Assembly (NCBI GenBank): GCA_958296105.1
Contig: OY282441.1
Span: forward strand, 2,811,800 to 2,875,799
Length of the DNA stretch: 64,000 nt
Direction: 5' to 3'
Source: an uncultured Dehalococcoidia bacterium
GTDB taxonomy: Bacteria > Chloroflexota > Dehalococcoidia > Lucifugimonadales > UBA1123
In this document: one piece after another, positions 43,684 to 46,715 of the stretch
Layout: every line of letters starts with the position of its first letter
Position numbering within the stretch: position 1 is the first letter of the stretch
Program-made: the position numbers and the translations under genes
Notes under the pieces: model-generated
What the model was told of the DNA's origin: nothing
Databases searched by the model: none
The model's input: the letters and a program-made list of their open reading frames with translations, nothing else

Positions 43684-44856
43684 ATGGACTTCTCGTACCG
43701 CTACACAGACGAGCAGCAAGACTTCCGCGCCGAGCTCTCGGCGTGGCTCGACCGCATCGCCGACCTCCCCGCCGACGAGCCGTCTGACGGCGGCTCCGGT
43801 CTGCGCGACCTCGCTCGGCGGCTTGGCGGGCGTGGCTGGCTCGCCCCATCCGAGCCTGCCGAGCGAGGCGGCGGCGCGCTCGACTCCGATCTCACCGTGG
43901 TCTTGCTCGAAGAGTTGAACCGCCGCGGCCTGCTGTTCCTCCTCGAAGACGAGGCGCAGTCACTCAGGACAGCCCTGATCGACTGGAACCCGCGTGAACG
44001 CGCCCTGATCGGATCACTCGCGCTTGGCGAGCGCGCCGTTTGGCGACATCGGTTCACCGTCTCTCCGCAGCCCGGATCCGCTCCCGCTCTCGACCTCGAT
44101 TCCGTGGGCATAACCGCCGCGCCCGATGCCGATGGCTACGTTCTAAACGGCGCTGGCATGTTCAGCGGCGCGGGTCGCCCCGACATCCTCTGGACGCTCG
44201 CGCTGCTCGACCCCGACGCCTCCAGCCAGTCGGCGGTGTGCCTGATCGTAGATGCCTCGTCCGAGGGCATCTCGTACCCGTCCGCCCGCTCTCTCTCGCA
44301 CGTCGCCCCGCGCCCCGTCCGCTTCGAGGACGTATGGGTACTGCGCTCGGACGCTCTCGGCCCAGAGGGAGAGGGACATCGTGTCCTCGCCGCCAGAGTG
44401 TCGCTCGACCCTCGCGCAGACCTGCCCACTTGGGTAGAGACCGAGACCGAAGAGCTTCTCGGCTACGCGCGCTCCACGGAGTTCGGCGGACGTCCTCTCG
44501 CCGCCGACCCTATCCGAGCGCGGATACTCGTAGAGGCGTACATCGCCAGCCGCGTATCGCGCCTGCTCAGGATGCGCGCGAGCTGGCTGCGTCAGACCGG
44601 CGACGGCTCGAACGCGGCCGATTCACTTTCCGAGCTGTGGCGGCGAAGCGCGGCGTCCGCGCTCTCGGAATCCGCGCGCCAGATCGTTGGTCCGCGCGCG
44701 CTCCTCTCGCCCGCGGACCCAAGCGCAGCCGCCGAGGGCAGGTTCGACCGCCTCTCCCGCCGCGAGATCGCCGAGCGCGAGGCAGGCGACCCCGAGCGCG
44801 AGGCGATTGCGACAGAGCTGGAGCTGAGCGAGCGGCGCGAGGCGACGGGGATATGA
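43684..44856 (+). CDS. divergent acyl-CoA dehydrogenase family protein
   Basis: The 390-residue protein has an acyl-CoA dehydrogenase N-terminal helix (YRYTDEQQDFRAELSAWLDRIADL), RRLGGRGWLAPSEPAERGGG, and a middle beta domain (GYVLNGAGMFSGAGRPDILWTLALL). The C-terminal half is Arg/Ser/Ala-rich and poorly conserved, without an obvious catalytic Glu motif, so activity is uncertain. Its last codons (ELSERREATGI) are copied four more times downstream in a 56-bp tandem repeat, and the stop overlaps the first micro-ORF start (ATGA). The spacing from GGAGG to ATG is long (12 bases). Confidence 0.8.
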   Translation: MDFSYRYTDEQQDFRAELSAWLDRIADLPADEPSDGGSGLRDLARRLGGRGWLAPSEPAERGGGALDSDLTVVLLEELNRRGLLFLLEDEAQSLRTALIDWNPRERALIGSLALGERAVWRHRFTVSPQPGSAPALDLDSVGITAAPDADGYVLNGAGMFSGAGRPDILWTLALLDPDASSQSAVCLIVDASSEGISYPSARSLSHVAPRPVRFEDVWVLRSDALGPEGEGHRVLAARVSLDPRADLPTWVETETEELLGYARSTEFGGRPLAADPIRARILVEAYIASRVSRLLRMRASWLRQTGDGSNAADSLSELWRRSAASALSESARQIVGPRALLSPADPSAAAEGRFDRLSRREIAEREAGDPEREAIATELELSERREATGI

Positions 44857-44912
44857 GCTGGGCAGCCGCAGAGCCGGAGTTGAGCGAGCGGCGCGAGGCG
44901 ACGGGGATATGA
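44853..44912 (+). CDS. micro-ORF 1 in the 56-bp repeat (19 residues)
   Basis: It encodes MSWAAAEPELSERREATGI. The start overlaps the acyl-CoA dehydrogenase stop as ATGA, and its own stop overlaps the next micro-ORF in the same way. The N-terminal part resembles the start of the downstream membrane protein and the C-terminal part equals the end of the acyl-CoA dehydrogenase. Ribosomes finishing one frame could re-initiate on the next. Whether a stable peptide is made is unknown. Confidence 0.4.
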   Translation: MSWAAAEPELSERREATGI

Positions 44913-44968
44913 ATTGGGAAACCGCAGAGCCGGAGCTGAGCGAGCGGCGCGAGGCGACGGGGATATGA
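44909..44968 (+). CDS. micro-ORF 2 in the 56-bp repeat (19 residues)
   Basis: It encodes MNWETAEPELSERREATGI. This copy keeps the start most like the downstream gene (MNWVTSE), differing from the other copies at three residues. It overlaps its neighbours by 4 bases on each side. Confidence 0.4.
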   Translation: MNWETAEPELSERREATGI

Positions 44969-45024
44969 GCTGGGCAGCCGCAGAGCCGGAGCTGAGCGAG
45001 CGGCGCGAGGCGACGGGGATATGA
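44965..45024 (+). CDS. micro-ORF 3 in the 56-bp repeat (19 residues)
   Basis: It encodes the same 19 residues as micro-ORF 1 and is joined to its neighbours by ATGA overlaps. Its DNA differs from copy 1 at only one base (CTG for TTG, both Leu). Confidence 0.4.
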   Translation: MSWAAAEPELSERREATGI

Positions 45025-45080
45025 GCTGGGCAGCCGCAGAGCCGGAGCTGAGCGAGCGGCGCGAGGCGACGGGGATATGA
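45021..45080 (+). CDS. micro-ORF 4 in the 56-bp repeat (19 residues)
   Basis: It is the last of the chain and has the same peptide as copies 1 and 3. Its stop overlaps the ATG of the membrane-protein gene at 45077, so translation of that gene could be coupled through the whole chain. Confidence 0.4.
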   Translation: MSWAAAEPELSERREATGI

Positions 45081-45679
45081 ATTGGGTAACCAGCGAGATC
45101 GTAACCGTCTTAACCTTCCTGCTGCCGGGCTTCGTAGCCGCCGCCGTGTTCTACTCGCTGACATCGCATCCCAAGCCCAGCGATGCCGAACGTGTCATTC
45201 AGGCGCTGATATTTACTATAGTAGTACAGGCTGCTCTGAAGGGGATCCTGCTGATAGGCGGCTTGGCGGGATTCCAAACTCGATGGTCGAGCGAGTCCGA
45301 GACTCTGGCTTCCGTCGCGCTTTCTATAGTCGTCGCGCTGGCAGTGGTCTATATTTCCAACAACGACTTTGCGCACGGCATACTGAGAGTTTTCGGCGTC
45401 ACTAAGGAAACCTCCTACCCTTCGGAGTGGTACTCCGCGTTCTCCGAGATTTCCGATCAGTATGTCGTGTTACACTTGAAAGGAGAACGTCGGCTGTACG
45501 GATTCCCAGAAGAGTGGCCCAGCGACCCCGCGAAGGGACACTTCAGGATCGCCGAAGCTCAGTGGCTTACCGATGAAGAGACCCGACAGCTAACTGGAAT
45601 CGGAGTCATCTTGATTCCTGTAGCTGAAGTGGAGATGGTAGAATTCGTAGAGACAGTTTTGGAAGATGACGAGGGATGA
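45077..45679 (+). CDS. membrane protein, DUF6338-like
   Basis: The 200-residue protein has an N-terminal membrane domain with three spans (about residues 8-28 TVLTFLLPGFVAAAVFYSL, 42-65, 75-95). A cytosolic C-terminal domain begins near 115 (YPSEWYSAFSEISDQYVVLHLKGERRLYGFPEEWPSDPAKGHFRIAEAQWL). The layout and LPGFVAAAVFYSLTSHPKPS segment resemble the DUF6338 family, for which no activity is established. AT content is higher than in neighbours, hinting at transfer. The start overlaps the last micro-ORF. A proline-tailed small gene follows. Confidence 0.75.
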   Translation: MNWVTSEIVTVLTFLLPGFVAAAVFYSLTSHPKPSDAERVIQALIFTIVVQAALKGILLIGGLAGFQTRWSSESETLASVALSIVVALAVVYISNNDFAHGILRVFGVTKETSYPSEWYSAFSEISDQYVVLHLKGERRLYGFPEEWPSDPAKGHFRIAEAQWLTDEETRQLTGIGVILIPVAEVEMVEFVETVLEDDEG

Positions 45680-45694
45680 ATGGAGGTATGAACG

Positions 45695-45829
45695 ATGGTG
45701 AGAATATCGAACCCTTCTCCTGCCAGACGGCGGCGCATGGCAGCTGAAAAGAAGCTCGGCAGGCCGTCAGTCAAGATCGAAAACCTGCGCAAGCCGCCGC
45801 CCCCGCCGCCCCCGCCGCCAAAGAAGTAG
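45695..45829 (+). CDS. 44-residue basic miniprotein with polyproline tail
   Basis: The protein begins MVRISNPSPARRRRMAAEKK and ends in a run of nine prolines followed by KK, after ENLRK. It has no membrane segment. GGAGG lies 8 bases before this ATG (an alternative ATG at 45688 is too close to it and gives a different 19-residue frame). It starts 15 bases after the DUF6338-like gene, suggesting co-expression. A polyproline stretch of this length would stall ribosomes without EF-P. Confidence 0.6.
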   Translation: MVRISNPSPARRRRMAAEKKLGRPSVKIENLRKPPPPPPPPPKK

Positions 45830-45896: not shown

Positions 45897-46715
45897 ATGG
45901 CTTCCATCAACACCGTAGAAGATATCATCGAGGCCTTGGACGCGGATCCGCTGCTGCTGGAGGCGTTGCGCGCTCGGATTATGACCCGTGAGCTGATCGA
46001 TCAGCCCGACAGGTTCGAGCGGTTCGTGGAAACTGTCCAGCAGTTCATGGATCCCACCGACAGGCGGCTGGTCGTGCTTGAGAACGCAGTTGCGCAGCTT
46101 GCCGAGTCTCACGCTAGGCTTGCCGAGTCCAACGCTAGGCTTGAGAACGCAGTTGCAGGGCTTGAGAACGCAGTTGCGCGACTTGCCGAGTCCCACGCCA
46201 GTCTTGAGAACACAGTTGAGCGGCTTGCTGAGTCCCACACTAGGCTTGAGCAGTCCCACTTCAGGCTGGAACGGAAAGTCGACAGCATGAGAGGCGACCA
46301 CTTGGAGATGCGCCTACAGGGTCGCATCCACGGACTGCTGGGCAGCAGGGAGCTGTACAGAGTCCGAGTGGTCAGAGCTATGTATCCGGCAGGGTCGTCG
46401 CCCAAATTCTTGAACGACGTCGATGACGCCATACAAGACGACACCATCACCACTAGACAGCACCAGCGGCTGATGGACACGGACCTGATCGTCAGGGGCC
46501 GCCGCCGCGACTCTGCCCAAGATGTCTACGTGGCATTGGAAGTGTCCAATCGGCTCAACCGTGATGACGTGGACAGGGTGGTGGAGAGTGGAGAAGCCCT
46601 CGCGCTGGTGTACCCGAGCGCCGAGATTCAGACAGCGGTGTACGGGCGGGATATCTCTGATGAGCATGTGTCTCGCGCTCATACGAAGGGCGTTGAGATA
46701 TTCTTGAGCAGGTAG
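45897..46715 (+). CDS. coiled-coil protein with PD-(D/E)XK-like C-terminal domain
   Basis: The 272-residue protein has a helical N-terminus, then a long coiled coil at about residues 57-130 built of near-repeats of LAESHARLE and LENAVARLE. A C-terminal domain contains MDTDLIVRGRRRDSAQDVYVALEVSNRLNRDDVDRVVESGEAL (about 193-235). Asp196, Glu215 and the ExS pattern resemble a nuclease-fold active site such as that of Uma2 relatives. Function is unknown. The coil is encoded by near-repeated DNA (46075-46260), so its length could vary. It may form a unit with the two genes before it. Confidence 0.7.
   Translation: MASINTVEDIIEALDADPLLLEALRARIMTRELIDQPDRFERFVETVQQFMDPTDRRLVVLENAVAQLAESHARLAESNARLENAVAGLENAVARLAESHASLENTVERLAESHTRLEQSHFRLERKVDSMRGDHLEMRLQGRIHGLLGSRELYRVRVVRAMYPAGSSPKFLNDVDDAIQDDTITTRQHQRLMDTDLIVRGRRRDSAQDVYVALEVSNRLNRDDVDRVVESGEALALVYPSAEIQTAVYGRDISDEHVSRAHTKGVEIFLSR

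What the first reader, a model, noticed from the sequence alone, without database searches (positions are those of the whole stretch)
44813..45092. 56-bp tandem repeat that builds a chain of four ATGA-overlapping 19-codon micro-ORFs
Five 56-bp copies span the junction between an acyl-CoA dehydrogenase-like gene and a membrane-protein gene. Because 56 bases leave room for a 60-base ORF with 4-base overlaps, each copy regenerates a complete ORF (MSWAAAEPELSERREATGI or a close variant), joined stop-to-start by ATGA. The peptide is a fusion of the downstream gene's N-terminus and the upstream gene's C-terminus, as expected from tandem duplication across an overlapping gene pair. Copy number would set how many re-initiation events lie between the two genes, so the array could act as a translational attenuator, or as a source of a repeated small peptide. 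I know of no described system of this form.
Basis: partly seen in the sequence, partly recalled or inferred. Interest (0 to 1): 0.75.

Follow-up and report, generated by a model that had tools for sequence, protein, structure and literature searches.

The report
Micro-ORF chain from junction tandem duplication
A 56-base stretch spanning the overlapping end of one gene and start of the next has been copied in tandem so that four tiny, nearly identical reading frames now sit stop-to-start between the two genes; it is real and resembles the mycobacterial MIRU repeats, but it looks like a by-product of a repeat-prone genome rather than a new kind of system.

Summary
Four 60-nt ORFs (19 codons plus stop), linked by ATGA, lie between an acyl-CoA dehydrogenase-like gene (43684-44856) and a DUF6338 gene (45077-45679). 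The array is 4.8 copies of a 56-bp unit (TRF 44813-45080). The unit is the upstream gene's last ~13 codons fused to the downstream gene's first five codons. A duplication of length 2 mod 3 across a -4 overlap regenerates such ORFs automatically; even shuffled 56-bp units give a chain of three or more in 24% of trials.

The array occurs once in its genome and in none of 392 other genomes of the class. Orthologous loci in three congeners lack both array and downstream gene. The genome is repeat-rich: about 120 arrays/Mb (period >=30) against 10/Mb in a congener. A second clean case exists (71 bp, GTGA-linked, two 24-aa ORFs), plus a looser 95-bp case; a third -4-junction array has the wrong period and makes no chain. 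Numbers fit random placement.

Best reading: a non-mobile, in-situ MIRU analogue through which ribosomes can re-initiate stepwise, so the duplication is tolerated. Dose-dependent attenuation and a functional peptide are untested.

The parts
43684..44856 (+). Upstream gene: acyl-CoA dehydrogenase-like, 390 aa, ending ...TELELSERREATGI*; its 3' end is the partial first copy of the repeat
   Evidence: PF00441, PF02771; orthologs 60-61% identical in three congeners
44813..45080 (+). Tandem array, 56-bp unit, 4.8 copies
   Evidence: TRF; copy comparison
44853..44912 (+). Micro-ORF 1, MSWAAAEPELSERREATGI
44909..44968 (+). Micro-ORF 2, MNWETAEPELSERREATGI, closest to the start of DUF6338 (14 of 15 bases)
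44965..45024 (+). Micro-ORF 3, MSWAAAEPELSERREATGI
45021..45080 (+). Micro-ORF 4, MSWAAAEPELSERREATGI, its TGA overlapping the DUF6338 ATG
45077..45679 (+). Downstream gene: DUF6338 family protein, 200 aa
   Evidence: PF19865; match begins at residue 7 = profile position 7, supporting this start codon

Best explanation
In this Dehalococcoidia (SAR202-like) genome the dehydrogenase and DUF6338 genes once overlapped directly by ATGA. A tandem duplication of 56 bp across that junction, followed by further unit amplification, put four copies between them. Because 56 is 2 mod 3 and a -4 overlap shifts the frame by the same amount, each copy is read from the start of the downstream gene into the end of the upstream gene and closes exactly on the next ATGA. 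Each copy also carries the same weak ribosome-binding context. Ribosomes finishing the dehydrogenase can therefore re-initiate from one 19-codon ORF to the next and reach DUF6338, much as MIRUs are thought to be passed in mycobacterial operons, so the duplication is tolerated. Shown: the anatomy, the derivation of the unit from the flanking genes, its privacy to this genome, the repeat-rich background, and a second independent case. Inferred: the ancestral direct overlap, that the chain is translated, that it keeps DUF6338 expressed, and that the peptide has no function of its own. Whether DUF6338 output falls with copy number is open.
For: Unit composed of the two flanking gene ends. Period 2 mod 3 makes the chain automatic; shuffled units do it in 24% of trials. 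One locus in the genome, none in 392 other genomes of the class, none at orthologous loci of congeners. Genome has about 120 arrays/Mb against 10 and 40/Mb in two relatives. Independent second case with a 71-bp unit and GTGA links at L075, absent from relatives. Arrays on -4 junctions as frequent as random placement predicts. Same 23 bases with weak anti-SD pairing before all five ATGs. -4 overlaps couple translation in tested bacteria and archaea (PMC6728339).
Against: No expression data. The anti-SD pairing is weak (-6.3 kcal/mol against -10 to -12 for clear sites nearby). No relative with a direct ATGA overlap of these two genes was found, so the ancestral state is inferred. Two of three -4-junction arrays keep coupling (expected 0.53 arrays of 2 mod 3, seen 2, P = 0.10), so weak selection is not excluded.
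Confidence: 0.78

Rival explanations
1. A copy-number-dependent translational attenuator: each extra unit costs a fraction of the ribosomes, and the array has been kept because it sets the DUF6338 to dehydrogenase ratio.
For: Identical re-initiation context in all units; unbroken chain in all four; a second junction with the same design.
Against: Not conserved; frequency fits random placement; copies too young and alike to show that ORFs were maintained; a third -4-junction array (L108) breaks the pattern.
Confidence: 0.12
2. A mobile MIRU-like element that inserted at the ATGA site.
For: The architecture matches MIRU insertion at start codons with -4 coupling (PMC12548453).
Against: One locus in the genome; the unit is made wholly of flanking-gene sequence; the L075 array has an unrelated unit made from its own flanking genes.
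Confidence: 0.02
3. The array makes a functional repeated 19-residue peptide.
For: Four ORFs encode nearly the same peptide.
Against: The peptide follows automatically from the two gene ends; no relative encodes it; copies are too similar to test for selection.
Confidence: 0.03
4. Assembly artefact: fewer or no extra copies exist in the organism.
For: No reads available; copies 3 and 4 are identical.
Against: Copies 1 and 2 carry their own substitutions; arrays of this kind are common all over the genome.
Confidence: 0.05

Closest known systems
Mycobacterial interspersed repetitive units (MIRUs), e.g. the senX3-regX3 junction (Supply et al. 1997; PMC12548453, PMC4213456, PMC2734929)
   Same: Short tandem direct repeats between co-directional genes, each carrying a small ORF coupled to its neighbour with a -4 overlap; units of 77 and 53 bp are 2 mod 3, like 56.
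   Different: MIRUs are homologous units dispersed over about 41 sites and described as apparently mobile; this unit occurs at one site and is built from its own flanking genes.
Termination-reinitiation coupling at ATGA-overlapping gene pairs (PMC6728339)
   Same: Stop and start codons overlap by ATGA at every link.
   Different: Normally one link between two real genes; here five links in series through four micro-ORFs. Coupling not measured here.
Recently formed, genome-wide tandem repeats of Borg elements (PMC9879509)
   Same: Young, locus-specific arrays spread through one genome and rare in related genomes; arrays inside genes have periods divisible by three.
   Different: Borgs are archaeal extrachromosomal elements with A-biased repeats; the passages read do not describe chains of coupled micro-ORFs.

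Membership tests
MIRU | Short (40-100 bp) direct repeats, often tandem, between co-directional genes | tested here: met
   56 bp, 4.8 copies, between two + strand genes
MIRU | Small ORF in the unit, coupled by -4 overlap to neighbours | tested here: met
   ATGA at all five links
MIRU | Homologous units dispersed at many sites of the genome | tested here: not met
   One locus; the only other match is 49 bases at 82% identity elsewhere in the window
MIRU | Unit foreign to the flanking genes, inserted at a start codon | tested here: not met
   Unit consists of the ends of the two flanking genes
MIRU | Sequence homology to mycobacterial MIRUs | not tested
   No MIRU reference sequence was compared; the derivation from flanking genes makes homology unlikely
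MIRU | Copy-number polymorphism between strains (at a subset of loci) | not testable with these tools
   One genome of the species; no reads; metagenome scans not available
Termination-reinitiation coupled gene pair | Overlap of stop and start codons | tested here: met
   ATGA at each link
Termination-reinitiation coupled gene pair | Downstream translation depends on upstream translation | not testable with these tools
   Needs reporter fusions with a premature stop upstream

The most novel reading that the evidence does not exclude
Tandem duplication across coupled gene junctions is a recurrent route by which this repeat-prone genome builds copy-number-variable ladders of translation re-initiation (this array and L075), tuning the ratio of neighbouring proteins without any mobile element.
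Probability: 0.12. Interest if true: 0.65.

Novelty: new variant of a known kind. Interest (0 to 1): 0.33.

Why it matters
It shows, in a phylum far from mycobacteria, how a MIRU-like chain of coupled micro-ORFs can arise in place without a mobile element, by a simple rule: a duplication of 2 mod 3 bases over a -4 overlap keeps the coupling intact. It also offers a natural ladder of near-identical re-initiation steps on which the loss of ribosomes per step could be measured.

Tried and rejected
Mobile or dispersed element: rejected, one locus. Conserved regulatory array: rejected for the relatives held. RNA structure: the array folds only slightly better than shuffles (z -1.43; 19 of 200 shuffles fold at least as well). 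Promoter inside the repeat: no sigma-70-like site; other promoter types are not covered. Selection for 2 mod 3 periods at overlapping junctions: not supported, 2 of 3 arrays with placement as expected by chance. A scan of genome contigs with the DUF6338 protein found no relative. The 95-bp arrays at L051, L040 and L039 looked at first like a dispersed family with one period, but their sequences differ. At L051 the upstream gamma-glutamyltranspeptidase ends at a TAG in another frame, so it is only a looser parallel. The whole genome was not available as a file, so the census uses sampled stretches covering about 52% of it, with a crude gene caller of my own. A literature search for tandem duplication plus overlapping genes plus re-initiation gave nothing, and SAR202 plus tandem repeats gave only an unrelated paper.

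Full report
OBSERVATION. The sequence is as described. TRF finds a 56-bp period, 4.8 copies, at 44813-45080 with no indels. Four 60-nt ORFs (44853-44912, 44909-44968, 44965-45024, 45021-45080) run head to tail, each start ATG overlapping the preceding TGA as ATGA. The first overlaps the stop of the dehydrogenase-like gene, and the last stop overlaps the start of the DUF6338 gene. Copies 3 and 4 are identical; copy 1 differs from them at one (synonymous) base and copy 2 at four.

FLANKING GENES. The upstream gene is a real, conserved acyl-CoA dehydrogenase-like gene (Pfam PF00441 and PF02771), with 60-61% identical orthologs in three congeners; in L010 it again follows pheT, judged by eye from the translation. 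In those orthologs the last residues vary, there is no array, and no DUF6338 gene follows. The downstream protein belongs to PF19865 (DUF6338); its profile match begins at residue 7 = position 7, which supports the ATG at 45077. DUF6338 is sporadic in the phylum: 13 of 301 genomes over the cut-off.

ORIGIN. The unit's 3' part (CAGAGCYGGAGCTGAGCGAGCGGCGCGAGGCGACGGGGATATGA) is the dehydrogenase's own 3' end. Its 5' part (ATGAATTGGGAAACC in micro-ORF 2) matches the DUF6338 start (ATGAATTGGGTAACC) at 14 of 15 bases. So the array arose by tandem duplication across an ATGA-overlapped junction. Micro-ORF 2 looks founder-like, and the derived start block shared by ORFs 1, 3 and 4 shows that units were amplified or exchanged later. 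The direct overlap of the two genes before the duplication is inferred; no relative with this gene pair was found.

WHY THE CHAIN APPEARS. From a given ATGA, the next copy of gene A's stop lies one period plus one base downstream of the ATG, so the ORF closes on it when the period is 2 mod 3. Both parts are then read in their original frames, so a stop inside is unlikely. This needs no selection. As a looser control, dinucleotide-shuffled 56-bp units repeated in tandem give a chain of at least three linked ORFs on one strand or the other in 24% of trials.

GENOMIC BACKGROUND. In 1.664 Mb sampled from the 3.18-Mb single-contig genome there are 200 arrays with period >=30 (120/Mb), against 10/Mb in a congener (G003) and 40/Mb in a same-order genome (G046), 400 kb each. 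All 80 arrays lying inside called genes have periods of 0 mod 3. This is a genome prone to tandem duplication, and the 56-bp array ranks 63rd of 200 by TRF score.

PARALLEL CASES. L075 13250-13427 (71 bp = 2 mod 3, 2.5 copies) is a clean second case. A 299-aa gene ends ...LPAAERISE*, GTGA leads into VKALFSVAEVAKMERSSPAERTSE*, then VKALFSVAEVAKLERNSPAERISE*, then the zinc-ADH gene VKALFIEMPG.... Relatives have the same gene order with a plain spacer of up to about 120 bases. L051 8954-9347 (95 bp, minus strand) gives ATGA-linked ORFs of 32, 35 and 35 aa before a cupin gene, but the upstream gamma-glutamyltranspeptidase ends in another frame; a congener (L098) has a spacer of about 11 bases there. 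L108 (109 bp = 1 mod 3) spans a GTGA junction and makes no equal-length chain. Under random placement 2.3 arrays should cover a -4 junction; 3 do (Poisson P = 0.40). For arrays of 2 mod 3 alone 0.53 are expected and 2 seen (P = 0.10). These counts rest on a crude gene caller. There is no firm sign of selection.

MECHANISM. All five ATGs share the same upstream 23 bases, with weak anti-SD pairing (-6.3 kcal/mol; genes nearby with clear sites score -10 to -12). The -4 overlap is a standard geometry of termination-reinitiation (PMC6728339). The most likely behaviour is stepwise re-initiation that lets DUF6338 keep being translated. Whether output falls with copy number is untested. No sigma-70-like promoter lies in the array, and its RNA folding is unremarkable.

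COMPARISON. Units of 77 and 53 bp stand in tandem between senX3 and regX3 (PMC4213456); both lengths are 2 mod 3 (my arithmetic). MIRUs are dispersed, at 41 sites in H37Rv (PMC2734929). The present unit is not: one locus in its genome and none in 392 other genomes of the class, where the few other matches are short, 28-38 bases. It works like a MIRU but is not a member. The nearest named relatives are Dehalococcoidia and SAR202-cluster MAGs.

LIMITS. No reads, no expression data, one genome of the species. Copies 3 and 4 are identical, so the copy number could be off; the substitutions in copies 1 and 2 argue against a pure assembly artefact. The session allowed no metagenome scan, so copy-number variation in nature could not be looked at.

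Noticed in passing
L075 13250-13427 (G000:C1, stretch starting 875001): Second clean junction array: 71-bp unit, GTGA-linked 24-aa micro-ORFs between a 299-aa gene and a zinc-ADH gene, with the same N-terminus-plus-C-terminus fusion logic.
   Followed up: yes
L051 8954-9347 (G000:C1, stretch starting 2530001), minus strand: 95-bp array, 4 copies, with ATGA-linked ORFs of 32/35/35 aa between a gamma-glutamyltranspeptidase gene and a cupin gene.
   Followed up: partly
G000, sampled stretches: The genome holds about 12 times more tandem arrays (period >=30) per Mb than a congener; why this species is so prone to tandem duplication is unexplained.
   Followed up: partly
L050 14539-14818: A 140-bp duplication of the 5' end of nrdR: a truncated first copy precedes a full 169-aa NrdR reading frame.
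   Followed up: partly
L053 7197-9559: Cluster of several tandem copies of a small gene (MTMPTVEREVATRESVEAL..., hydrophobic C-terminal segment) containing a varying number of QANHE-type repeats.
   Followed up: no
45695-45829: 44-aa ORF ending in a proline run (MVRISNPSP...KPPPPPPPPPKK) just after DUF6338, with a strong Shine-Dalgarno-like site (-10.7 kcal/mol).
   Followed up: no
46076-46267: In-frame 63-bp repeat (3 copies) inside a coiled-coil-like 272-aa gene.
   Followed up: no
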